Shown in pieces: positions 12,789-23,847 of a stretch of 64,000 nucleotides of DNA (the first letter of the stretch is position 1; each line of letters starts with the position of its first letter). A model generated the notes under the pieces. It saw only the letters and a list, made by a program, of their open reading frames with translations. It was not told the origin of the DNA and made no database searches. Location of the stretch: assembly GCF_000024545.1 (NCBI RefSeq), contig NC_013947.1:2418001-2482000 (forward strand), in the 5' to 3' direction. Origin of the DNA: Stackebrandtia nassauensis DSM 44728 (GTDB taxonomy: Bacteria; Actinomycetota; Actinomycetes; Mycobacteriales; Micromonosporaceae). Both the position numbers and the translations under genes were made by a program.

Positions 12789-13964
12789 TTACCGCCGTTG
12801 GACGGCCTCGATGCGGTTGCCGTTGCTGTCGAAGAAGTGCAGCAGGTCGGTGTGAACCTCGATCGACATCGCCTGTCCGGGGCGGCATCGTGAATATGGG
12901 GCCAGTCTGACCGTCACGTCGGAGATCTGTTTGTTGTGCCGTCCGGATTCCGGCTGCTGGGAGTGTGCGTCGTGGTCAACCGGTACGGCCCCGATCCTGA
13001 GATGGACGAGGGACTCGTGTCCGTGGTGTTCCATGAACTGGATCAATCCGTTGAGGACATTGGGCCGGTCGTGGGACACCGGCCGTACCGCCTCGGCGCG
13101 AATGCCCACGACGATCTGTTCACCGTGATATTTGGACACTCCGCGGCTTTGCAGGTCGCTCCAGGGCAACCGGATGCTCTGCGATCCCAGATGCAGGGTC
13201 ACGTACCGGTCGAGGTGTACCTCGACGTAGGCCCGCACCAGGTTCATGCGGGGGTTGCCCAGGAACGCCGCCACGTACATGGTGGCGGGTTTGTCGTAGA
13301 CCTGGTCAGGGGAGCCGACGTCCTGCAACCGTCCCCGTCTCAGTACCGCCACTCGGTCGGCCATGGTCAGCGCCTCGGTCTGGTCGTGGGTGACGTAGAC
13401 GGTGGTGATGTTCAGGCGGTGGGCCATTTCGACGATCTCGGTGCGCAGCTGCGAGCGAAGTCCGATGTCCAGGTTGGACAAGGGTTCGTCCATGAGCAGG
13501 AACCGGGGATGGCGGATCAGCGCCCGGCCCATGGCGACCCGTTGGCGCTGACCTCCCGACAGCTGGTGCGGTTTGCGGTCGAGCAGGTCCTCGATTCCCA
13601 ACGACGCGGCCATCGCGACGGTGCGCTCCTTGATGGTGGCGGCATCGACTCCCGCGATGCGCAGCGGAAAGCCGATGTTGTCGGCGACCCGGAAATGCGG
13701 GTACAGGGCGAAGTTCTGAAACACCATGGCGACCCCACGTTCTCGTGGTGTCAGGTGGTTGGCGAACTCCCCATTGAGGAGGATGTCCCCGTCGAGGGTG
13801 TCCTCAAGGCCCGCGAGCATGCGCAGGATCGTCGACTTTCCGCAACCTGAGGGGCCCAGCAGGACCATGAACTCACCGTTGTTCACCGATAGGTTCAGGT
13901 CATCCACCGCGACGATGTCGGGAGCGAAGACCTTCGAGACGTTCTTGAGCTCAACGGTGGTCAC
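12789..13964 (-). CDS. Sugar ABC transporter ATPase (MsmK/UgpC type)
   Basis: 391 residues. ATPase domain with Walker A GPSGCGKST, Q-loop FQNFALYPH, signature LSGGQRQRVAMGRAL, Walker B RFLLMDEPLSNLD and H-loop VTHDQTEAL. A C-terminal OB/TOBE regulatory region of about 140 residues is typical of MalK/MsmK proteins. GTG start with GGAGGA six bases upstream. It is divergent from the lacI gene and faces the permease and binding-protein genes at 15241-18361, which lack an ATPase of their own; it very likely powers them and may also serve other CUT1 importers. Confidence 0.92.
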   Translation of the reverse strand: MTTVELKNVSKVFAPDIVAVDDLNLSVNNGEFMVLLGPSGCGKSTILRMLAGLEDTLDGDILLNGEFANHLTPRERGVAMVFQNFALYPHFRVADNIGFPLRIAGVDAATIKERTVAMAASLGIEDLLDRKPHQLSGGQRQRVAMGRALIRHPRFLLMDEPLSNLDIGLRSQLRTEIVEMAHRLNITTVYVTHDQTEALTMADRVAVLRRGRLQDVGSPDQVYDKPATMYVAAFLGNPRMNLVRAYVEVHLDRYVTLHLGSQSIRLPWSDLQSRGVSKYHGEQIVVGIRAEAVRPVSHDRPNVLNGLIQFMEHHGHESLVHLRIGAVPVDHDAHSQQPESGRHNKQISDVTVRLAPYSRCRPGQAMSIEVHTDLLHFFDSNGNRIEAVQRR

Positions 13965-14136
13965 GTCTCCTCCGAGACTGAGAGCTGGGACACACTGGCC
14001 GTGGTCGGGTATGAGTGTGCCAAAGACCGGCTTGGCCGTACTTCAGGTGAACGTCCAGTGTCCAGCTGGCTGCATGGGTAGCAACGCGCATGTCGCGGCG
14101 GGGGTCGCTCGCGTCGGCAAGTGAAAGATCTGCATA

Positions 14137-14165
14137 TTGACAGGGTCTGATATCGTTCTTGTAAT
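14137..14165 (+). promoter_or_regulatory. Sigma70-like promoter of the lacI-led operon
   Basis: TTGACA (14137) and TGTAAT (14160) are separated by exactly 17 bases, an unusually good consensus for this GC-rich sequence. The -10 box runs into the operator at 14162. The operon start codon is about 45 bases downstream. Confidence 0.65.
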
Positions 14166-14183
14166 CGTTCTCAAGAACGTTTA
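14162..14183. promoter_or_regulatory. LacI-family operator
   Basis: TAATCGTTCTCAAGAACGTTTA-type dyad: the core arms CGTTCT/AGAACG are perfect and 9 of 11 positions match over the full half-sites. It overlaps the -10 box and the expected transcription start, the classic repression position. Autoregulation by the LacI protein encoded 27 bases downstream is inferred. Confidence 0.65.
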
Positions 14184-14209
14184 CAACGTATGATACGCAG
14201 GGAAAACGC

Positions 14210-15244
14210 ATGGCAGAGACAAAGAAGTCGAACCTCGCGCTGGTCGCCGCCCGAGCCGGAGTGTCGGTCGCGTCGGTGTCCCGGGTGTTGAACGGAGGCT
14301 CGGCCTCCGAGGAGCTGACCCGGCGGGTGCGGGAGGCGGCGGACGAACTCGGGTACGTGCCCGATGCCAGCGCGCGCACCCTGCGAACCGGCCGCACCGA
14401 CCAGATCGCGCTCGCGGTCGCCGATGTCGGGAACCCCGTCTATGTGCAGATGATGCGGGCGGTCACCCGTATCGTCGCCAAGGCCGACTACCGGCTCGTG
14501 GTGTCGTCCACCGGCAGTGACCCGCAGGCGCAGATCGATCTGCTCACCAGTCTCAACCGTGGCTACGCCGACGGTCTTCTGTTGAGCCCGTTGCGGATCA
14601 CCCCCGACCTCATCGACGCCATGCGCGCGAGTCGGCTGCCGATCGTGGTCATCGGTTCGCTGCCTCCCGACGTGGAGCTCGACAACGTTCGCGCCGACTC
14701 GGCGACCGGCATCGGGCTCGCCATCGAGCACCTGGTCGAGCAGGGGCGCCGTCGCATCGCGCTCGTGAACGGCCCGGTCGACACCGTCCCCGGCGCCGCC
14801 CGGCTCGCCGGGTATCTCGACGCGGTGAAGCGCTTCGGGTTGCCCGACAGTCCGGAACTGCAGGTGACCGCCGATGCCTTCACCTATCGGGCCGGACGCG
14901 AGGCGACCGCCGACCTGTTGCGGCAGTCCAGCCCCGACGCGGTCGTGGGCGCCAACGATCTGCTGGCCGTGGCCGCGCTGAAGGAACTCAACGCCGCCGG
15001 AGCCCGGGTGCCCGACGATGTCGCCGTCGTCGGCATGGACGACACCGATGCGGCCGAGCTGGCCACGCCGTCGCTCACCAGCGTCGACCTCGGATCGGCC
15101 GAGCGCGCCAAGGCCGCGGCCGAACTCCTCATCAGACGGATCAGGAACCCGGAGTCGAAGGTCCGCAGGATCGTCATCACCCCCTCCCTGTCGGTCCGCG
15201 AATCGAGCCGCACCGAGGCCCAGAAGCCGGACGGTGCCTCATGA
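14210..15244 (+). CDS. LacI-family transcriptional regulator
   Basis: 344 residues. The N-terminal HTH reads NLALVAARAGVSVASVSRVL, with the hinge-helix region ELGYVPDASARTLRTGRTD. The periplasmic-binding-protein-like ligand domain fills the rest, with RRIALVNGPVDTVPGA and PDDVAVVGMDD segments. It is the first gene of the operon that continues with two permeases, a binding protein and ribosyl-compound enzymes. Its inducer is therefore probably the imported substrate or a product. The stop overlaps the next start as ATGA. Confidence 0.92.
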   Translation: MAETKKSNLALVAARAGVSVASVSRVLNGGSASEELTRRVREAADELGYVPDASARTLRTGRTDQIALAVADVGNPVYVQMMRAVTRIVAKADYRLVVSSTGSDPQAQIDLLTSLNRGYADGLLLSPLRITPDLIDAMRASRLPIVVIGSLPPDVELDNVRADSATGIGLAIEHLVEQGRRRIALVNGPVDTVPGAARLAGYLDAVKRFGLPDSPELQVTADAFTYRAGREATADLLRQSSPDAVVGANDLLAVAALKELNAAGARVPDDVAVVGMDDTDAAELATPSLTSVDLGSAERAKAAAELLIRRIRNPESKVRRIVITPSLSVRESSRTEAQKPDGAS

Positions 15245-16176
15245 CGGCGATGACGCAGTCGGTCGGCAACCCTCAGCCCCGCGCTCGACGCCGACGCCGT
15301 CGACTCGGTTCGAGTGGCCGGGACGCGTGGCCGTTCGTACTCCCGGCGCTGCTTCCGGTGATGCTGTTCAGCGTCTATCCGTTGGTGTACGGCGTTTTCC
15401 TCGGCTTCACCGACGCCGAGGCCGGACTGAACGTGGAGACGAACTTCAACGGCGTCGACAACTACATCAAGCTCGGCGGCAACGAACTGTTCTGGAGTTC
15501 GTTCAAGATCGGACTGATCTGGGCGTTCAGCGTCACGATTCTGCAGTTCCTGGCCTCGCTCGGCTTGGCGCTGCTGCTGAACCTCGATCTGCGGCTGCGC
15601 TGGCTGGCGCGCACCCTCGCGCTCGTGCCCTGGGCGATGCCGCCGGTGATCATCGCGATCATGTGGCAGCTCATGCTCAACCCCGACTACGGGCCCGTCA
15701 ACCGCAGCCTGGAAGCACTCGGGCTGCCCGGCGGCGTCAACTGGCTGGGTGACGGCTCCACCGCTCTGGCGGTCGTCATCATCGTCGGTGTCTGGGCCGG
15801 GATGCCCCAGACGACGATCACGCTGCTGGCCGGGTTGCAGGCCGTCCCCGTCGAGCTGCACGAAGCCGCCGCGATCGACGGTGCCAACACCCGGCGCCGG
15901 TTCTGGCACGTCACGCTGCCCGCGATCCGGCCGGTGGTCGTCGCGATCACCACACTCGACCTGATCTGGAACTTCAACTCCTTCGCGCTCGTGTTCGTGC
16001 TGACCGCGGGCGGGCCGGGCGGTACCACGATGCTGCCGAGCCTGTTCGCCTACAACGAGGCGTTCCGCTACGGCAACTTCGGTTACGCGGCCGCGATGGG
16101 CAACGTCATGGTCATCGTGATCGGCGCGATCCTCTTCTTCTACCTGCGCGGCCAGATGCGAAGGCGGCTCCAATGA
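15241..16176 (+). CDS. Sugar ABC transporter permease (MalF type)
   Basis: 311 residues with six membrane helices: FVLPALLPVMLFSVYPLVYG at the N-terminus, and the EAA loop ELHEAAAIDGANTRRRFW that docks to the ATPase. This is CUT1 carbohydrate importer architecture. Translationally coupled to lacI upstream and to the second permease downstream (ATGA at both ends). It works with the permease at 16173, the binding protein at 17084 and probably the ATPase at 12789. Confidence 0.92.
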   Translation: MTAMTQSVGNPQPRARRRRRRLGSSGRDAWPFVLPALLPVMLFSVYPLVYGVFLGFTDAEAGLNVETNFNGVDNYIKLGGNELFWSSFKIGLIWAFSVTILQFLASLGLALLLNLDLRLRWLARTLALVPWAMPPVIIAIMWQLMLNPDYGPVNRSLEALGLPGGVNWLGDGSTALAVVIIVGVWAGMPQTTITLLAGLQAVPVELHEAAAIDGANTRRRFWHVTLPAIRPVVVAITTLDLIWNFNSFALVFVLTAGGPGGTTMLPSLFAYNEAFRYGNFGYAAAMGNVMVIVIGAILFFYLRGQMRRRLQ

Positions 16177-17033
16177 CGACACTCCCCAGAACATCCACTG
16201 TAGGCCGAAGCGCGGTCGCCCGGCCGCTGCAATACCTGGCGCTCCTCGCCTACATGTGCTTCCTGGCGTTCCCGCTGCTGTTCCTGCTGAGCACCGCGTT
16301 CAAGACGCCACGGGAGCTGAAGTCCCCGGACGCCGGACTGCTGCCCGAACACTTCGACCTCGGCAACTTCTCCTCGGCGATCACGAAGGCCGACCTGTTC
16401 ACCGCGGCGGGAAACAGCCTGCTCGTCTCCGCGACCACCACCGTCCTGGTCACGCTCGTGGCGCTGCCCGCCGCCTACGCCCTCGTCCGGTTCCGGACCA
16501 AGCTGCGGGGCCTGGCGACCGGCTGGATCCTGCTCAGCCAGGTCTTCCCCTTCATCCTCATCATCATCCCGCTGTTCCTGCTGCTCAAGAACATCGGACT
16601 GGTCGACACCCTGCTGGGCCTGGTGCTCGTCTACGCCGTGTGGGCGCTGCCGTTCTCACTGTGGATGCTCCAGGGATACGTGTCCGCGATCCCGGTCGAG
16701 CTGGAGGAGGCCAGCGCCGTCGACGGCGCCGGACGACTGACGACGCTCACCAGGATCGTCCTGCCGCTGCTCGCGCCCGGTTTGGTCGCCACCAGCCTGT
16801 TCACGTTCATCAACTCCTGGAACGAGTTCTTCTTCGCGCTGGTCCTCATCCAGGACCCCGACATGCAGACCCTGCCGCTCGCGCTGGCGCGCTTCGTCGG
16901 CGTCGAGGGGCAGGTCCAGCTCGGCCAGCTCGCCGCGGCCGCACTCCTGGCCTGTGTCCCGAGCCTGGCGTTCTTCATGTTCATCCAGAAGCGGCTCACC
17001 GCCGGACTTCTCAGCGGCGCGGTCAAGGGCTGA
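16173..17033 (+). CDS. Sugar ABC transporter permease (MalG type)
   Basis: 286 residues, six membrane helices, EAA loop ELEEASAVDGAGRLTTLTR, then FTFINSWNEFFFAL, a hallmark of MalG-like permeases. It overlaps the MalF-type permease by 4 bases. Second half of the heterodimeric membrane channel for the imported compound. Confidence 0.92.
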   Translation: MTTLPRTSTVGRSAVARPLQYLALLAYMCFLAFPLLFLLSTAFKTPRELKSPDAGLLPEHFDLGNFSSAITKADLFTAAGNSLLVSATTTVLVTLVALPAAYALVRFRTKLRGLATGWILLSQVFPFILIIIPLFLLLKNIGLVDTLLGLVLVYAVWALPFSLWMLQGYVSAIPVELEEASAVDGAGRLTTLTRIVLPLLAPGLVATSLFTFINSWNEFFFALVLIQDPDMQTLPLALARFVGVEGQVQLGQLAAAALLACVPSLAFFMFIQKRLTAGLLSGAVKG

Positions 17034-17083
17034 TCGCCGCGAATCGTGCCTTCCCTCAACACCCCCATGAAAGAGAGAGAACC

Positions 17084-18361
17084 ATGCGAACCAGCACCAG
17101 AGCCCGAGCGGGCGCCGCGCTCGCCGCGCTGTCCCTCGCCCTGACCGGATGTTCCGCGTTCGGCGTCGGCGACGAGGACGGCGACACCCTCACCTTCCAG
17201 TCGCTGGCGTTCCAGGACACCACGATCAAGGCGACGAAGGACATCGTGGACGCCTGGAACAAGAAGAACCCCGACACCCCGGTGAAGATCGTGAAGGGCA
17301 GCTGGGACAACGTCCACGACCAGCTCGTCACCCAGTTCAAGGGCGGCACCGCCCCTGACATCATCCACGACGAGTCCGCCGACATCATGGGCTTCGCCGA
17401 GCAGGGCTACCTGGCCGACCTAGGGCCGCATCTGAGCGACAAGGTGAAGTCCGCGGTCTCCGACGAGGTCTGGAAGTCGGTGACCACCGAGGACGACAAG
17501 GTGGTCGCGGCCCCGACGCTGCTGCAGTCGTACGTCGTGTTCGCCAACACCGACGCGTTCGCCGACGCCGACGTCAAGGTCCCCACCGGTGAGGCCCTGG
17601 ACTGGGACGACCTGCAAAAGCTCGCGAAGAAGCTCACCGCCGACGGTGACTACGGCGTCGGCTGGGGCATGAAGGACCCCACCGCCACGGTCATGAACCT
17701 GGCCCTCAACTTCGACGGCACCTTCTTCTCCGGGAAGGGCGACAAGGCGTCCATCGACGTGGGGGACAACGAACTCGAAGTGCCCGAACGCATCCACTCC
17801 ATGGCCTTCAAGGACAAGTCACTCGACCCGAAGTCGCTCACCCAGAGCGGATCCGACGTCCTGCCGGGATTCTTCGACGGCAAGTACTCCATGTACGTCG
17901 CGGGCAACTACGTCGCCCAGCAGATCGTCGAGTCCGCGCCGAAGGACTTCAAGTGGGAGGTGCTGCCGCCACTGGCCGGAACCGCCGGTGCCAGCCAGGC
18001 CGCCAACCCGCAGACGATGTCCGTGTCCGCCGAGAGCGACCACGTCGACGAGTCCGCCAAGTTCATCGACTTCTTCATGCGGGCCGACCACCAGGCCGCC
18101 CTGGCCGAAGGTGACTGGCTGATCCCGTCCTCGAAGGACGCGCGCAAGACCGTCGCCACCAACACCAAGGGCGCCAACGGCTGGGAGAGCGTCCTCGCCT
18201 CGGGGGACACCCTGACCGCCGCCCCGTTCCAGTCGGCGAGCAAATACCCACAGTGGAAAGACCAGTTCGCCACACCCGCGCTCCAGGACTACCTGGCGGA
18301 CAAGATCACCGCCAAGGAACTGAAGCGGAAGCTCGTCGACGGCTGGTCCGAACTGGACTGA
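17084..18361 (+). CDS. Extracellular solute-binding lipoprotein of the sugar ABC importer
   Basis: 425 residues. N-terminal lipoprotein signal ending LSLALTGCSAFG (lipobox LTGC), so it is anchored to the outer face of the membrane. The mature part follows the family-1 carbohydrate-binding pattern, with APDIIHDESADIMGFAEQGYL. The ATG at 17084 has an AGAGAGAGA purine run upstream; the in-frame open stretch before it is inside the permease gene. It delivers the substrate to the two permeases. Substrate is unknown; the operon suggests a ribosylated or N-glycosylated compound. Confidence 0.9.
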   Translation: MRTSTRARAGAALAALSLALTGCSAFGVGDEDGDTLTFQSLAFQDTTIKATKDIVDAWNKKNPDTPVKIVKGSWDNVHDQLVTQFKGGTAPDIIHDESADIMGFAEQGYLADLGPHLSDKVKSAVSDEVWKSVTTEDDKVVAAPTLLQSYVVFANTDAFADADVKVPTGEALDWDDLQKLAKKLTADGDYGVGWGMKDPTATVMNLALNFDGTFFSGKGDKASIDVGDNELEVPERIHSMAFKDKSLDPKSLTQSGSDVLPGFFDGKYSMYVAGNYVAQQIVESAPKDFKWEVLPPLAGTAGASQAANPQTMSVSAESDHVDESAKFIDFFMRADHQAALAEGDWLIPSSKDARKTVATNTKGANGWESVLASGDTLTAAPFQSASKYPQWKDQFATPALQDYLADKITAKELKRKLVDGWSELD

Positions 18362-18380
18362 CGACACCGGCAGCAGCCAC

Positions 18381-18412
18381 GTCCAGCTCCGGCGGCACCG
18401 CCGGAGCTGGAC
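18381..18412 (+). terminator. Perfect 14-bp hairpin between binding-protein and glycohydrolase genes
   Basis: Arms GTCCAGCTCCGGCG and CGCCGGAGCTGGAC with the 4-base loop GCAC. There is no U-tract and the operon seems to continue 25 bases later, so it is more likely an mRNA 3'-end stabiliser and partial terminator that raises the binding protein over downstream enzymes, as in many ABC importer operons. Confidence 0.55.
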
Positions 18413-18436
18413 ACCTGACGAGAAGCGAGGAGACAC

Positions 18437-19588
18437 ATGGACACACTGGTTGACAAGGCGACGGGAGCGCTGACGGGATCAGCCGTGGGCGACGCGCTCG
18501 GGGGGGCCGCCGAGGGCAATCCGCCCGAGGCGATCCAGGAACGCTACGGCGGCTTCATCGAGGGGATCGTGCCCCCGTTCCTGGCCGACTGGCGCAACGC
18601 CCGTCCGATCGCCCCGTACCACAAGGGCGACGGCCACATCACCGACGACACCCTCATGACCTCGGCACTCGTCGACGTCTACGACACCGTGCGGGACCAT
18701 CTCGACGCCCACGCGATCGCCGAACACCTGGTGCCGCTGCTGATCGGCGACAAACGCTGGATCCCCGAACTCGAAACCGAGGCGCTGCTGCTGCACCGGG
18801 TGTTCCTCGCGGAGAAGTGGCTCGTCGCGCGCCTCCACTACGGACACATCGACCCGCGTGAGGCGGGCGTCGGCAACATCGTCAACTGTGGAGCGACCAT
18901 GTACGTGGCCCCGATCGGCATCGTCAACGCCGGATCCCCCGAGGCCGCCTACGCGGAGGCCATCGACGTCGCCGGAGCCCACCAGTCGAGCTACGGCCGC
19001 GAGGCCGCCGGAGTCTTCGCTGCGGCCGTCGCCGAGGCGATGCGCCCCGGCGCCACCGTCGAAACCGTGATCGACCGCGCCCTGAGCCTCGCGAAGGACG
19101 GCACCAAGTCCGCCATCGACGCTGTCGCGCAGGCCGCCTCGGGAGTCGACGACTGGCGAACCGGCCTGGCCGAGCTGCGGCGTGCCGTCGAACCCTTCGA
19201 CACCGTCGGCCCGCACTACCGCCAACCCGCGATGGACGCCCGGATCCCCAGCCGCACCAAGTCCATCGAGGAACTGCCGATCGCCCTGGGCATGCTCATC
19301 GCCGCCGACGGCGACTACCGCGAAGCCGTACTGGGCGCCGTCAACTACGGCCGTGACTCCGACTCGATCGCCGTCATGGCCGGATCCCTGGCGGGCGCCC
19401 TGCACGGCATCGACGCCGTCCCCCGCGAGTGGATCGACGGCGTGAGCGAGGGCAGCCGGATGGACATCACCGCCACCGGCCCCGTCATCGCCGCCGTCGC
19501 CCGCGACGTGTGGGCGGCCGACGCCCAACGCGCCGAACAAGCCGCGAAAACCCGCGCCGCCCTCACCGCCACCGAGGCCGCGCGATGA
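18437..19588 (+). CDS. ADP-ribosylglycohydrolase family protein (first of two)
   Basis: 383 residues. ARH-fold metal-binding motifs are all present: GSAVGDALGG near the N-terminus, GHITDDTLMTSALVDVYD (TDDT), and NYGRDSDSIAVMAGSLAGAL near the C-terminus; these Asp/Thr residues bind two Mg ions in this family. The enzymes cleave N- or O-glycosidic bonds to ADP-ribose or simpler ribosides. Its place behind a sugar importer and before a ribokinase suggests a small ribosylated molecule rather than a modified protein. The stop overlaps the next start (ATGATG). Confidence 0.87.
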   Translation: MDTLVDKATGALTGSAVGDALGGAAEGNPPEAIQERYGGFIEGIVPPFLADWRNARPIAPYHKGDGHITDDTLMTSALVDVYDTVRDHLDAHAIAEHLVPLLIGDKRWIPELETEALLLHRVFLAEKWLVARLHYGHIDPREAGVGNIVNCGATMYVAPIGIVNAGSPEAAYAEAIDVAGAHQSSYGREAAGVFAAAVAEAMRPGATVETVIDRALSLAKDGTKSAIDAVAQAASGVDDWRTGLAELRRAVEPFDTVGPHYRQPAMDARIPSRTKSIEELPIALGMLIAADGDYREAVLGAVNYGRDSDSIAVMAGSLAGALHGIDAVPREWIDGVSEGSRMDITATGPVIAAVARDVWAADAQRAEQAAKTRAALTATEAAR

Positions 19589-20934
19589 TGCGGCTCAGCT
19601 GGACCCAACCCGAGGACCTCGTCCCGCACGCGCTGGTCGCCGCCGAACTCGACGGCCGCGACACCACCGAGATCCGGCAGCGCTGGCGCGATGGGGGAGG
19701 TGCGGCCGAACCCGCGGTCAGCGGCGCCACCCCCGATCCGGCCCCGGAACACGTCCGCACCCTCGCGCGCGAACTGCTGTCCGAAATAGACAAGCTCCCG
19801 GATCCCGAGGTGTTGCGCACCAACGAACCCGACGACATCGACGACATCCTCGCCACAACCTCGTCCTCGGACCCGCCCAAGCCCGGCCCCGACTTCGACG
19901 ACCGGGTGCTCGGTGCGTGGCTGGGCCGCGCCAGCGGCTGCCTGCTGGGCAAACCGGTGGAGAAGCTCCCGCTCGCGGGCATCCGCGCCATCGGCCGCGC
20001 CACCGGAAACTGGCCGCTGCGCTCCTACTTCACCGAGGTCGGACTCGACGCCACCACCGCCGCCAAGTACCCGTGGAACCGCCGCAGCCGCCCGACCAGC
20101 CTCGTCGAGAACATCGACGGCATGCCTGAGGACGACGACCTCAACTTCCCGCTGATCGCGCTGGATCTCTTGGAGCGCACCGGCTTCGGCTTCAGCACCG
20201 AAGACGTCGCCCAGTCCTGGCTGTCCCACCTGCCCGGCGGGCGCGTCTTCACCGCCGAACGCATCACCTACCGCAACCTCCTCGACGGCTACGAACCCGA
20301 CGTCGCCGGTCGGGTGCGCAACCCCTTCCGCGACTGGATCGGCGCCCAGATCCGCACCGACGTATACGGCTGGACCAACCCGGGCCAGCCACAGCGCGCC
20401 GCCCGGCTCGCCTGGACCGACGCGCGGCTGAGTCACGGCCGCAACGGCGTCTACGGCGCGATGTTCGCGGCCGCTGCCAGCGCCGCGGCCGTCACCGCCG
20501 TCCCCGTCACCGAAGTACTGGAAACGGGTCTGTCGGTCGTACCGCCCGCGAGCCGCTACGCCGCCGCGGTGCGACGCGGCACCCAACTCGGTCTGGGCGA
20601 TCTGCCCGACGACGCCGCCATCGACGTCCTCCACGAGGAATACGGCCACCTGCACTGGGTCCATGTGCTCAACAACGCCGCGCTGCTCGCGTTCGCCCTG
20701 GCCCGCGGCGACGGCGACTTCGCCCGCACGATCACCCTCGCGGTCTCGGGCGGCTGGGACACCGACTCGGTCGGCGCGACGGCGGGAGCCATCACCGGCG
20801 CCCTCACCGGGGCGAAGAATCTGCCGCCCCGGTGGATCGATCCGCTGGACGACCGGCTCGCCACCACTGTCCCCGGCTTCGCCGGCGCCCGGTTCTCCAA
20901 CCTCGCCGCACGCACGGTGGCGATAGCCCGATGA
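19585..20934 (+). CDS. ADP-ribosylglycohydrolase family protein (second, with extra N-terminal domain)
   Basis: 449 residues. About 100 N-terminal residues (LSWTQPEDLVPHALVAAEL and an acidic linker) are not part of the ARH fold. The catalytic region follows: GAWLGRASGCLLGKPVEKLP, then PEDDDLNFPLIALDLLERTG (DDD in place of TDDT) and SGGWDTDSVGATAGAITGAL. The altered second motif suggests a different substrate from its neighbour. The ATG at 19585 overlaps the previous stop; its own stop overlaps the ribokinase start. Confidence 0.84.
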   Translation: MMRLSWTQPEDLVPHALVAAELDGRDTTEIRQRWRDGGGAAEPAVSGATPDPAPEHVRTLARELLSEIDKLPDPEVLRTNEPDDIDDILATTSSSDPPKPGPDFDDRVLGAWLGRASGCLLGKPVEKLPLAGIRAIGRATGNWPLRSYFTEVGLDATTAAKYPWNRRSRPTSLVENIDGMPEDDDLNFPLIALDLLERTGFGFSTEDVAQSWLSHLPGGRVFTAERITYRNLLDGYEPDVAGRVRNPFRDWIGAQIRTDVYGWTNPGQPQRAARLAWTDARLSHGRNGVYGAMFAAAASAAAVTAVPVTEVLETGLSVVPPASRYAAAVRRGTQLGLGDLPDDAAIDVLHEEYGHLHWVHVLNNAALLAFALARGDGDFARTITLAVSGGWDTDSVGATAGAITGALTGAKNLPPRWIDPLDDRLATTVPGFAGARFSNLAARTVAIAR

Positions 20935-21851
20935 GCGTCGTCGTCCTGGGCAGCGCCAACCTCGACCTCGTATACGACGTCGACCGCATCCCCGCGCCCG
21001 GCGAAACCGTCCTGTCCCGAAGCTTCGAGTCCTTCCCCGGCGGCAAGGGCCTCAACCAGGCCATCGCCGCCGCCCGCAGTGGGGCCGAGGTCCATTTCCT
21101 TGTCGCCCTTGGCAAAGACGCCGCCGGTGACCGCCTCGCCGCCGAAGCCCGCGACGCCGGGATCGACCTGCGCGACCGCCGCGTCGACGCTCCCACCGGA
21201 ACCGCCGTGATCTACGTCGACCGCGACGGCGAGAACTCGATCGTCGTCAACTCCGGCGCCAACGCCACCCTCGTGGACCTCACCGAGGCCGAAGTCGCCG
21301 CCATCGCCGCAGCGAATCTGCTGGTGCTGCAAATGGAGACGCCGCCCACGACGGTGCGGGCGGCGGCGCGAGTCGCGAAAGCGAACGGCACCACCGTCAT
21401 CCTCAACGCCGCCCCGAGCGGCTCGGTCCCCGCCGCGCTGCTCGGCGAGGTCGACATCCTCATCGTCAACGAACACGAGGCCGCCGACCTGGCGGGCCAG
21501 ACCGCCGACGCCCCCGACCAATCACTGTCGGCGCTCACCACACACGGCTGTGCCGTCATCGTCACGCTGGGAGCAGCGGGCTCCCTCGTCGGCGCCCCCG
21601 GCCAACCCACGGCCAAGATCCCGGCCATCACAGTCACCCCCATCGACACCACCGGCGCGGGCGACGCGTTCGTAGGCGCGTTCGCCGCAGCACTCGACAA
21701 CAGCGGCCGGGCAACCAACCCCGACCTGCGCACTCTCATCGGCGCGACCGAGTTCGCCACGACCGCCGCCGGAATCGCGGTACAACGCAAGGGCGCGGTT
21801 CCCTCGATACCCACCCTGGAGGAGGTGCGGCTCCACAGTGCCCAAAGCTGA
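20931..21851 (+). CDS. Ribokinase-like PfkB sugar kinase
   Basis: 306 residues. N-terminal PfkB signature SFPGGKGLNQAIAAARSG; C-terminal signature PIDTTGAGDAFVGAFAAAL, with the catalytic Asp and anion hole. NxNAAPS-like (VILNAAPSGS) and NEHEA motifs are those of ribokinases. It would phosphorylate ribose, or another sugar freed by the glycohydrolases, at the expense of ATP. ATGA-coupled to the gene before; its 3' end overlaps the next gene by 14 bases. Confidence 0.9.
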   Translation: MSVVVLGSANLDLVYDVDRIPAPGETVLSRSFESFPGGKGLNQAIAAARSGAEVHFLVALGKDAAGDRLAAEARDAGIDLRDRRVDAPTGTAVIYVDRDGENSIVVNSGANATLVDLTEAEVAAIAAANLLVLQMETPPTTVRAAARVAKANGTTVILNAAPSGSVPAALLGEVDILIVNEHEAADLAGQTADAPDQSLSALTTHGCAVIVTLGAAGSLVGAPGQPTAKIPAITVTPIDTTGAGDAFVGAFAAALDNSGRATNPDLRTLIGATEFATTAAGIAVQRKGAVPSIPTLEEVRLHSAQS

Positions 21852-23847
21852 CCCTGACGAGGCGAACACCAACGAGTTCGACCCGCTGGTGCCCCGGCCC
21901 ATCGACCGGCCCACGGTCCTGCCACCCGGCGGCAACATTGACGCCGCCACCGGCGATGTCGCCAAGATCTTCGCGGCCCCCGACGACCCCGCTGACTGGC
22001 CGTCCTGGCGCGCCGACCTCGCCGCCTGGCGCGACGAGTCCCGAACCCGCCTCGCCTACAGCGGCAAGGCGTACGAGAACGCGGCGACCCGCTGGGCGAG
22101 CCGCGCCTACGCCGTGGCCCAAGTCTGGCTGTGGGACGAGCGCCTGTTCGACCACACCGGACAGAAGTTCACCGTCGACGCCTTCCTCAACTCAATCGCC
22201 GACCAGGGTGGCCTCGACGGTCTGGTCCTGTGGCACGCCTACCCGATCATCGGCATCGACGACCGCAACCAGTTCGACTTCTACCGCGACGTACCCGGCC
22301 TGAAAGACCTCGTCCACCAGTTCCACGAACGCGGACTGCGCGTCTTCGTCGACTACAACCCCTGGGACACCGGCACCCGCCGCGCCAAGCGCGACGACGC
22401 CGAAGAACTGGCCGCACTCGTCTCGGAACTCGGCGCCGACGGAGTCTTCCTCGACACGCTCAAGGAAGGCGACGCGCGCCTCACCTCGGCCCTCACCACC
22501 GCCACCCCGCCGCAGGTCCTGGAGGGCGAATCCCGGGTCCCCAACCAACGCGTCGAAGACCACCTGCTGAGCTGGGCGCAGTGGTTCGCCGACTCCCAGG
22601 CCCCCGGCGTGATGCGCGCTCACTGGTACGAGCGCCGCCACATGATGCACTCCATCCGCCGCTGGAACCGCGACCACAGCGGCGAACTCCAGTCGGCATG
22701 GATGAACGGCACCGGGATCCTGGTGTGGGACGCGGTATTCGGCGTCTGGGTCGGCTGGAACCGTCGCGACGAAGCGACCCTGCGACGCATGCTCCGGGTA
22801 CAGCGAGCGGCCAGCGACGTCTTGATCGACGGCGACTGGTCGCCGCTGGAAGGCGCCACAACCGAGGCGATCTCCGCCGGAATGTACGTGTCCCGATGGA
22901 CCAAGGACGGGACAACACTGTGGACGATAGTCAATCGCCGCGACCATGACTGGACCGGTGATCCACTGGCAGCGCCGCTGCCCCAGGGAGCCCGCCGATT
23001 CGACGTCACAGCGGGAACAACAGCCCCGATCACCGTCACCGTGCCCGCCCGGGGCATAACCGGCATCCTCGAACTCGCCCCAGGCGCCGACGAACCCGAA
23101 TGGCTGGCTCGACTGCTGAACGAAGCGTCGAAGGACCCCGGCTCGTCCGACGCGACATTCCCCGCGCGCCAAGCGATCCGCGTCGTCCCCCCACCCTCGC
23201 GATCCACAGCACCCGCAACCGAAACCATCCGCGTCGACCCCGGCTCACACCAACTCGCAGTGACCTACCGACGTCGCGAAACCGGCTTCTACCAGGGCGC
23301 CCCCTACGTCGAGGAGTGGAAGCCGCTGCCGCCCCGCCTGCACGACGACCGACGCGAAACGCTCGATGTCACGATCCCCGGGCCCGTCGCCGTCGCCACC
23401 AGGGAAGTCTCGGTGGCCCAGTTCCGGTCATTCCTCGAAACGACCGGATACGAGCCGCCGGTATCCGCCCGATTCCTCCAAGGCCGCGACGACATCTCCG
23501 ACGACGCTCCCGTGACAGGCGTGTCGCTTTCGGACGCGCGAGCATACGCGTCCTGGGCGGGCGCCCGCCTCCCCAACGAGTTCGAATGGCAGCTCGCCGC
23601 CGCCCAGTCCCACTTCCAACGGCGCTCTCCCGTCGTCTGGAACTGGACTGAGAGCGAACACAGCGACGGCATCACCCGCTTCGCCATGCTCAAGGGCGGC
23701 AGCGACCACCAAAGCACCGGCTCCGACTGGTACACCGACGGCGGCCTCCGTGATGAGACCTTCACCCTGAAACTGCTGCTCGCCGGGCTCGGCGTGGAAC
23801 GCTCCCCGAGCATCGGTTTCCGGATCGCCTGGGACCTACCCACCTGA
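21838..23847 (+). CDS. Glycoside-hydrolase-like TIM barrel fused to an FGE-sulfatase-type domain
   Basis: 669 residues. Residues about 60-400 look like a (beta/alpha)8 glycosidase: GLRVFVDYNPWDTGTR, then LGADGVFLDTLKEGDARL, where the Asp of FLDT sits at the usual nucleophile position. The last 180 residues carry a formylglycine-generating-enzyme/SUMF1-type C-lectin fold: REVSVAQFRSFLETTGYEPP, DDAPVTGVSLSDARAYASWAGARLP, NEFEWQLAAA, WNWTES, and GFRIAW. The FGE copper/active-site cysteines are absent, so this part is likely for binding. GTG start with GGAGGAGG about 8 bases upstream. It is the last gene of the ribosyl-compound operon. Confidence 0.75.
   Translation: MPKADPDEANTNEFDPLVPRPIDRPTVLPPGGNIDAATGDVAKIFAAPDDPADWPSWRADLAAWRDESRTRLAYSGKAYENAATRWASRAYAVAQVWLWDERLFDHTGQKFTVDAFLNSIADQGGLDGLVLWHAYPIIGIDDRNQFDFYRDVPGLKDLVHQFHERGLRVFVDYNPWDTGTRRAKRDDAEELAALVSELGADGVFLDTLKEGDARLTSALTTATPPQVLEGESRVPNQRVEDHLLSWAQWFADSQAPGVMRAHWYERRHMMHSIRRWNRDHSGELQSAWMNGTGILVWDAVFGVWVGWNRRDEATLRRMLRVQRAASDVLIDGDWSPLEGATTEAISAGMYVSRWTKDGTTLWTIVNRRDHDWTGDPLAAPLPQGARRFDVTAGTTAPITVTVPARGITGILELAPGADEPEWLARLLNEASKDPGSSDATFPARQAIRVVPPPSRSTAPATETIRVDPGSHQLAVTYRRRETGFYQGAPYVEEWKPLPPRLHDDRRETLDVTIPGPVAVATREVSVAQFRSFLETTGYEPPVSARFLQGRDDISDDAPVTGVSLSDARAYASWAGARLPNEFEWQLAAAQSHFQRRSPVVWNWTESEHSDGITRFAMLKGGSDHQSTGSDWYTDGGLRDETFTLKLLLAGLGVERSPSIGFRIAWDLPT

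What the first reader, a model, noticed from the sequence alone, without database searches (positions are those of the whole stretch)
12789..23847. A LacI-controlled importer with two ADP-ribosylglycohydrolase-type enzymes, a ribokinase and a glycosidase-like fusion
Gene order and coupling suggest a complete pathway: import of a ribosylated compound, two different ARH-type cleavages, and phosphorylation of the released ribose. ARH enzymes are usually discussed in reversal of protein ADP-ribosylation, so a nutrient-salvage operon built around two of them would be a distinct use. The substrate could be ADP-ribose, a free riboside, or another N-glycoside.
Basis: inference. Interest (0 to 1): 0.75.

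Follow-up and report, generated by a model that had tools for sequence, protein, structure and literature searches.

The report
Sugar-uptake operon with ADP-ribosylhydrolase-like enzymes
A bacterium carries an operon that looks built to import and take apart an unidentified ribose-containing compound, using enzymes from a family otherwise known for removing ADP-ribose from proteins; similar operons exist in other bacterial groups, so an undescribed nutrient pathway is likely.

Summary
In detail: 12789-23847 holds an ABC ATPase, a LacI regulator, two sugar-type permeases, a binding lipoprotein, two distinct ADP-ribosylglycohydrolase-family proteins (ARH1, ARH2), a ribokinase-like PfkB kinase and a GH13-like barrel fused to a cysteine-free FGE-type domain. 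Extra ARH-family genes and the fusion replace each other (33 loci with one, 33 with the other, 1 both, 1 neither). The arrangement recurs on rhizobial plasmids, with related ones in Deinococcus and Mycolicibacterium. ARH1 and ARH2 form two clades apart from DraG/Tri1-like proteins and miss those families' cut-offs. Best reading: uptake and dismantling of a ribofuranoside conjugate, ribose entering via the kinase and, probably, a hydroxy-dicarboxylic acid via CoA-transferase and lyase. The substrate is unidentified; no activity was measured.

The parts
12789..13964 (-). UgpC/MalK-type ABC ATPase, divergent from the operon; likely energiser of the importer
   Evidence: Pfam ABC_tran, OB_MalK; best NCBIfam UgpC 396 bits, below its cut-off 432; no second copy at E<=1e-90 in the genome. 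In rhizobial relatives a UgpC gene is inside the cluster, 6 of 6 records.
14159..14186 (.). putative LacI operator: imperfect 28-base palindrome, core 14166-14179 (CGTTCTCAAGAACG)
   Evidence: extent read by eye, two mismatches between halves; core lies 30 bases before the LacI start; exact core occurs once in the genome; many relatives have TGTAAACGTTTACA-type palindromes before LacI
14210..15244 (+). LacI-family regulator
   Evidence: Pfam LacI, Peripla_BP_3; best NCBIfam RbsR 194.6 bits, below cut-off 531
15241..16176 (+). ABC permease 1 (MalF/UgpA type)
16173..17033 (+). ABC permease 2 (MalG/GlcU type)
17084..18361 (+). substrate-binding lipoprotein (SBP_bac_1)
   Evidence: closest solved relative Lmo0181, E 2.9e-17; lipobox-like LTGC read by eye
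18381..18412 (+). 14-bp GC-rich hairpin without T-run between binding protein and ARH1
   Evidence: predicted -39.1 kcal/mol for the 75-base gap
18437..19588 (+). ARH1: ADP_ribosyl_GH-family protein with TDDT (69-72) and D307xD309-S310
   Evidence: Pfam 175 bits; these residues identical in 8 of 8 aligned rows
19585..20934 (+). ARH2: ADP_ribosyl_GH-family protein with EDDD (182-185) in place of TDDT, GWDTDS near the end, and a ~110-residue N-terminal extension without Pfam match
   Evidence: Pfam 170 bits at 110-416; these residues identical in 9 of 9 aligned rows
20931..21851 (+). ribokinase-like PfkB kinase
   Evidence: Pfam PfkB 207 bits; TIGR02152 267.2 bits, below cut-off 299.65; N10, D12, G37-G38-K39, N42, E136, D245 align with identical residues of the E. 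coli ribokinase chain 1gqt
21838..23847 (+). GH13-like TIM barrel (about 58-415) fused to an FGE-fold domain (about 455-669) with no cysteine

Best explanation
This is a LacI-regulated catabolic operon for a ribose-containing conjugate. SHOWN (sequence, conservation, predicted fold): the gene content, the tight gene coupling, recurrence in Actinomycetota and rhizobia, two ARH clades separate from DraG/Tri1-like proteins, a glycosidase-like fold for the fusion, and the linked CoA-transferase/CitE pair in relatives. INFERRED: the CUT1-type ABC importer brings in a glycoside; ARH1 and ARH2 act inside the cell as metal-dependent glycosidases on 1,2-cis ribofuranosyl linkages; the GH13-like fusion (or, in Streptomyces and others, usually two extra ARH-family enzymes) cuts a further linkage; the kinase turns free ribose into ribose 5-phosphate; and a released beta-hydroxy dicarboxylic acid (citramalate or 3-hydroxy-3-methylglutarate type) is activated by the CoA-transferase and split by the CitE-type lyase to acetyl-CoA and an oxo acid. 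In this genome those last two genes have their own locus with a DctM permease.
For: Operon structure. Of 80 named loci fetched by ARH1, 68 have full flanks (>=7 kb upstream, >=7.5 kb downstream); of these 67 have ARH2, 66 the CoA-transferase, 66 the CitE lyase, 51 LacI, 50 the permeases and binding protein, 49 the kinase. Fusion and extra ARHs replace one another (33/33/1/1; relatedness not corrected). Rhizobial plasmids: LacI-ABC-ARH1 in 6 of 6 annotated records read, ARH2 in 5, CoA-transferase plus lyase in 2, intact ribokinase in 1. Deinococcus: LacI-ABC-ARH-ribokinase-ARH; Mycolicibacterium: LacI-ARH-ABC-ribokinase. Sphingopyxis: ribokinase-fusion-GH127-type protein-CoA-transferase, no ARH match in the stretch. 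Tree: split from DraG/Tri1-like rows 96/93. Kinase residues. Glycomyces CoA-transferase: nearest solved relative succinate-hydroxymethylglutarate CoA-transferase, E 9.5e-52; Glycomyces lyase: nearest NCBIfam RipC, 138 bits, below cut-off 375. Own genome: CoA-transferase 67% identical and lyase adjacent at 1711417-1713662, DctM next. ARH3 cleaved only the alpha anomer of a serine-ADP-ribosyl peptide (PMC11664928, passages).
Against: No substrate, activity or expression data. The kinase gene is missing from 19 of 68 full-flank loci; in the 11 loci whose gap after ARH2 was measured it is 204 bases or less, too small for a kinase, so a dedicated kinase is not universal. The kinase, the CoA-transferase and the lyase all score below their curated equivalog cut-offs. 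The LacI core operator, even with one mismatch, is not found at the CoA-transferase/lyase locus, which has its own palindrome, so co-regulation in this genome is not shown. 18 of 68 loci, 16 of them titled Streptomyces, lack the permeases next to the enzymes. 4 of 6 rhizobial records lack the CoA-transferase/lyase pair in the stretch read. ARH2 carries D for the first T of TDDT, so its chemistry could differ.
Confidence: 0.6

Rival explanations
1. The ARH proteins cleave the glycoside of a different sugar or are not hydrolases of ribosides at all; the PfkB kinase acts on another pentose or ketose, and the operon takes up an ordinary plant or microbial oligosaccharide.
For: CUT1-type importers usually carry di- and oligosaccharides (established knowledge); the kinase falls below the ribokinase cut-off and is missing in 19 of 68 loci; a GH13-like partner.
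Against: Ribose-contacting residues of E. coli ribokinase are all kept (roles recalled); ribokinase kin also in the Deinococcus, Agrobacterium, Mycolicibacterium and Sphingopyxis versions.
Confidence: 0.22
2. Nucleoside or ADP-ribose salvage: the importer brings in a nucleoside, NAD fragment or ADP-ribose, and the ARHs remove the base or the ADP-ribosyl group.
For: ARH-family genes sit beside a nucleoside permease and a PfkB kinase in Pantoea and with a SIS protein, a kinase and UshA in a Yersinia plasmid, as in E. coli yegTUV (PMC10819704, passages); these ARHs group on the ARH1 side of the tree, weakly (85/77).
Against: They form their own branch there (100/96); the importer is CUT1, not a nucleoside type; a CoA-transferase/lyase pair is not explained.
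Confidence: 0.13
3. Reversal of protein ADP-ribosylation (DraG, Tri1 or immunity type); the neighbours are incidental.
For: Both proteins are ADP_ribosyl_GH family with the acidic motifs.
Against: DraG 46.2 and 30.8 bits against cut-off 337.05; Tri1 59.2 and 26.5 against 490; separate clades; conserved catabolic-type neighbours. ADP-ribosyltransferases near the clusters were not searched for.
Confidence: 0.05

Closest known systems
E. coli yegTUV (nucleoside-type transporter, ARH-family YegU, PfkB kinase YegV; function unknown, PMC10819704, passages)
   Same: An ARH-family protein with a PfkB kinase and a transporter; the E. coli protein groups on the ARH1 side of the tree, weakly (85/77; the row is from an unannotated E. 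coli record, taken to be YegU).
   Different: Nucleoside:H+ symporter-type transporter, one ARH, GntR-type regulator, no CoA-transferase or lyase.
DraG (dinitrogenase reductase-activating glycohydrolase)
   Same: Pfam family and acidic motifs.
   Different: Far below the DraG cut-off, other neighbours, separate clade from DraG-like proteins of the phylum (those are themselves below the DraG cut-off).
Ribokinase RbsK operons (LacI-type RbsR, CUT2 transporter; recalled)
   Same: LacI regulator whose best NCBIfam match is RbsR, below its cut-off, and a ribokinase-like kinase.
   Different: CUT1-type transporter with SBP_bac_1, plus ARH and GH-like enzymes; implies a conjugate rather than free ribose.
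Itaconate/citramalate and HMG degradation (SUGCT-type CoA-transferase, RipC/Rv2498c-type lyase)
   Same: The CoA-transferase and CitE-type lyase of a relative's cluster resemble these enzymes; Rv2498c is described as an (S)-citramalyl-CoA and (R)-HMG-CoA lyase (PMC6689899, abstract and headings).
   Different: Tied to an ARH/ABC cluster; no hydratase was noticed there, though none was searched for; scores below the curated cut-offs.

Membership tests
ADP_ribosyl_GH (PF03747) | Score above Pfam gathering threshold over the full domain | tested here: met
   175.0 and 170.4 bits against 26.2; profile 1-287 covered in both
ADP_ribosyl_GH (PF03747) | Acidic metal-site motifs near both ends (roles recalled) | tested here: met
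   ARH1 TDDT and DxDS 8 of 8 rows; ARH2 DDD and DxDS 9 of 9, with D for T at the first place
DraG (TIGR02662) | Equivalog cut-off 337.05 bits | tested here: not met
   46.2 and 30.8 bits
ADP-ribosylarginine hydrolase Tri1 (NF041672) | Equivalog cut-off 490 bits | tested here: not met
   59.2 and 26.5 bits
Protein de-ADP-ribosylating ARH enzymes | Removal of ADP-ribose from protein | not testable with these tools
   needs an enzyme assay
Ribokinase (TIGR02152) | Equivalog cut-off 299.65 bits | tested here: not met
   267.2 bits
Ribokinase (TIGR02152) | Residues at E. coli N14, D16, G41-K43, N46, E143, D255 (roles recalled) | tested here: met
   all identical in the alignment to the 1gqt chain
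CUT1 sugar ABC importer | Two BPD_transp_1 permeases, SBP_bac_1 lipoprotein, MalK/UgpC-type ATPase | tested here: met
   that this divergent ATPase serves this importer is inferred
Formylglycine-generating enzyme / EgtB | Catalytic cysteine pair (FGE, recalled) | tested here: not met
Glycoside hydrolase family 13 / clan GH-H | Barrel fold with Asp after strand 4 and Glu after strand 5 (recalled) | tested here: inconclusive
yegTUV-type module | Nucleoside-type permease plus one ARH plus PfkB | tested here: not met
   ABC importer and two ARHs instead

The most novel reading that the evidence does not exclude
A branch of the ADP-ribosylhydrolase fold works as a set of nutrient ribofuranosidases: up to four paralogues per operon dismantle a widespread but unidentified ribosylated hydroxy-acid conjugate of soil and plant habitats, feeding ribose into the pentose phosphate pathway and the acid into acetyl-CoA and an oxo acid. 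ARH proteins would then be glycosidases with a catabolic role as old as, or older than, de-ADP-ribosylation.
Probability: 0.3. Interest if true: 0.85.

Novelty: new variant of a known kind. Interest (0 to 1): 0.62.

Why it matters
If right, it gives the ADP-ribosylhydrolase family a second trade in nutrient catabolism, explains many genes now annotated only as 'ADP-ribosylglycohydrolase family protein' (565 stretches encoding a relative of ARH1 were confirmed in one capped scan), and points to a natural ribose conjugate that, as far as the searches here show, has not been linked to a pathway. The cluster makes the question testable: versions of it in Streptomyces, Kribbella, Glycomyces and Sinorhizobium can be deleted and grown on candidate compounds.

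Tried and rejected
A gene fusion of ARH2 and ribokinase in rhizobia was suspected from protein length and rejected: the extra ~390 residues have no Pfam match and no BLAST likeness to the PfkB kinases compared. A first ARH tree contained some reference rows read on the wrong strand; it was discarded and rebuilt. Rows dropped from the rebuilt tree: L002, L146 and L158 (no frame with both motifs), L157 (frame too far off centre), four duplicates, and two of ten extra-ARH rows that had a stop or were too short when the set was made. No true DraG or Tri1 was available as reference: 0 of 149 phylum genomes passed either cut-off, so sub-threshold DraG-like and Tri1-like proteins stood in; animal ARHs are not in the tree. 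A first structure model from 8 rows had mean pLDDT 55 and was not searched; the 35-row model was.

Literature: (listings; some returned nothing, the others list 1 to 25 of the matching papers) showed no title or abstract start that describes an ARH-based catabolic operon. A paper on ribose use by Bacteroides that I recalled was not among the 10 of 286 listed. The RikA ribokinase paper (PMC13432705: abstract, section 2.6 and a word search) does not mention ADP-ribosyl hydrolases. Search by operator for further regulon genes gave only the window site exactly and two one-mismatch sites, not followed up. A phylum-wide sample gave ARH1 at E<=1e-60 in 10 of 396 genomes, the window's own and nine of one genus: the cluster is patchy. 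The Deinococcus hypothetical protein between binding protein and ARH has no Pfam match at E<=10.
Full report
WHAT IS THERE. The finding is real. Nine genes lie between 12789 and 23847. Pfam identifies an ABC ATPase with MalK-type OB domain (minus strand), a LacI regulator, two permeases, an SBP_bac_1 lipoprotein, two ADP_ribosyl_GH proteins, a PfkB kinase and a protein with a C-terminal FGE-sulfatase domain. From LacI to the second permease and again from ARH1 to the last gene, neighbours overlap by 4 to 14 bases (coordinates). An imperfect palindrome (core 14166-14179) lies 30 bases before the LacI start; the core occurs exactly only once in the 6.84 Mb genome. A strong predicted hairpin without a T-run separates the binding protein from ARH1, a common way to raise binding-protein expression (general knowledge).

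THE TWO ARH PROTEINS. They are different subfamilies. ARH1 has the family's TDDT motif and NYGRDSDS near the end; ARH2 has EDDD in that place, GWDTDS near the end, and an N-terminal extension of about 110 residues. The motif residues are identical in 8 of 8 and 9 of 9 aligned rows. Neither comes near the DraG or Tri1 equivalog cut-offs. Nearest solved relatives by sequence are MJ1187 (E 1.3e-14) for ARH1 and 2cwc (E 4.6e-7) for ARH2. A tree of 61 ARH proteins (midpoint root, for drawing only) separates DraG-like, Tri1-like and two other own-genome ARHs (long branches) from all rows of operon type (96/93). ARH1 of actinobacteria and rhizobia form one clade (100/99), the ARH2 type another (100/100), and the extra ARHs of Streptomyces and others are sister to ARH2 (97/90). 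The deeper order is weaker (85/77 for ARH1 with the E. coli/Pantoea/Yersinia group). Authentic DraG, Tri1 and animal ARHs were not available for the tree.

NEIGHBOURS IN RELATIVES. Twelve of 41 genomes, the window's own included, have an ARH2 match at E<=1e-10. Of the eleven stretches taken round such matches, six show the full order LacI-permease-permease-binding protein-ARH1-ARH2-kinase-fusion, one (L024) has extra ARHs instead of the fusion, one has only ARH2 and kinase, and three only an ARH2-like gene. In the 68 of 80 loci with full flanks: ARH2 67, CoA-transferase 66, CitE-type lyase 66, LacI 51, permeases and binding protein 50, kinase 49, fusion 34, extra ARH 34, esterase 16 (homology map, tblastn E<=1e-12). 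Fusion and extra ARHs exclude each other almost perfectly (1 both, 33, 33, 1 neither); because this follows taxonomy, the Fisher value printed is not a probability. The esterase is a PF00756 protein in the two examples scanned, with a signal-like N-terminus by eye, and occurs with the fusion in 15 of 16 cases.

THE MISSING TWO GENES. The CoA-transferase and lyase are the steadiest partners of ARH1/ARH2, yet are absent downstream of the window's fusion gene. They exist in this genome as an adjacent pair at 1711417-1713662 (CoA-transferase 67% identical to the Glycomyces copy; lyase 45% and 60% over two pieces), followed by a DctM-type permease, with another palindrome upstream. The own CoA-transferase is 62.7 to 70.7% identical to 77 matching stretches in the mapped loci. 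The Glycomyces CoA-transferase is nearest in sequence to succinate-hydroxymethylglutarate CoA-transferase, the Glycomyces lyase to the RipC model among NCBIfam families and to acyl-CoA lyase beta chains among solved structures; all scores lie below equivalog cut-offs. Their usual joint effect is to split a beta-hydroxy acid into acetyl-CoA and an oxo acid; Rv2498c is described as an (S)-citramalyl-CoA and (R)-HMG-CoA lyase (PMC6689899, abstract and section headings). A permease of the DctM family beside them fits an organic-acid substrate.

OTHER PHYLA. Plasmid records show the same cluster in rhizobia and kin: LacI-permease-permease-binding protein-ARH1 in 6 of 6 annotated records read (Phyllobacterium, Sinorhizobium, Pseudochrobactrum, Nitratireductor, Ensifer, Agrobacterium), UgpC in 6, ARH2 in 5, CoA-transferase and lyase in 2, intact ribokinase in 1, and a 65-residue ribokinase remnant in 1. 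These six were picked from the 28 and 48 records with matches. ARH2 of the three such records scanned carries about 390 extra C-terminal residues without a Pfam match. Deinococcus aetherius and Mycolicibacterium arabiense have LacI, ABC, ARH2-type and ribokinase genes together. In Sphingopyxis a ribokinase, the fusion, a GH127-type beta-L-arabinofuranosidase-domain protein and a family III CoA-transferase are adjacent, with no ARH match in the stretch: another furanosidase family appears in the place of the ARHs. ARH genes also sit with sugar, sugar-acid or nucleoside-type genes in Pantoea, Yersinia, Enterobacter, Microvirga and Halalkalicoccus records. In a phylum-wide sample only 10 of 396 genomes had ARH1 at E<=1e-60, so the cluster is patchy.

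HOW IT PROBABLY WORKS. The importer is of the sugar (CUT1) type; LacI releases the operon when the substrate or a product binds. ARH3 cleaved only the alpha anomer of a serine-ADP-ribosyl peptide (PMC11664928, passages), so the simplest chemistry for ARH1/ARH2 is hydrolysis of 1,2-cis (alpha) ribofuranosyl linkages. Alpha-D-ribofuranosides exist in nature, for example as a naphthalene glycoside of the fungus Daldinia (PMC11204397, passages), but nothing here ties the operon to them. Ribose is then phosphorylated, and the acid goes through the CoA-transferase and lyase. All enzymatic steps are inferred.

VERDICT. A real, conserved catabolic-type gene cluster, not found described in the searches made here, in which ARH-family proteins take the place of glycosidases. 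I rate it a new variant of a known kind: the operon plan is familiar, the enzymes and the likely substrate are not. By recall, the genome length equals that of Stackebrandtia nassauensis; this was not tested.

Noticed in passing
genome positions 434020, 775649, 6541156 (L005, L002, L001): Three more ADP_ribosyl_GH genes elsewhere in the same genome; those at 0.43 and 6.54 Mb fell on the DraG/Tri1-like side of the tree on very long branches, the third was dropped from it.
   Followed up: partly
L117:8588-12571: CoA-transferase, CitE-type lyase and DctM permease with a 20-base palindrome ATGCATCTTATAAGATGCAT upstream; looks like a separate organic-acid locus.
   Followed up: partly
L125:2327-8379 (Sphingopyxis plasmid): Ribokinase, GH13-like/FGE fusion, GH127-type protein and CoA-transferase in a row next to a TonB receptor, without an ARH match: a possible Gram-negative counterpart of the pathway.
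   Followed up: partly
L128:7742-8854 (Deinococcus): 370-residue hypothetical protein between binding protein and ARH, no Pfam match at E<=10; may be a further enzyme of the same pathway.
   Followed up: partly
L122:10198-12297 and L128:11121-13223: ARH2-type proteins of about 700 residues whose C-terminal halves resemble each other (26% identity); the Sinorhizobium one matches no Pfam family there.
   Followed up: partly
L164 (CP103578.1): An Enterobacter plasmid record carries what are usually chromosome genes (fldA, fur, chiP, glnS, nagE) around a LacI-ARH-binding-protein cluster; a large insertion or an assembly matter.
   Followed up: no
L078 (Allokutzneria sp. A3M-2-11): An ARH1 gene with none of the usual partners matched in its 21 kb stretch.
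   Followed up: no
L073, L087, L100, L105: Streptomyces clusters in which ARH2 abuts or overlaps the CoA-transferase with no kinase gene between.
   Followed up: yes
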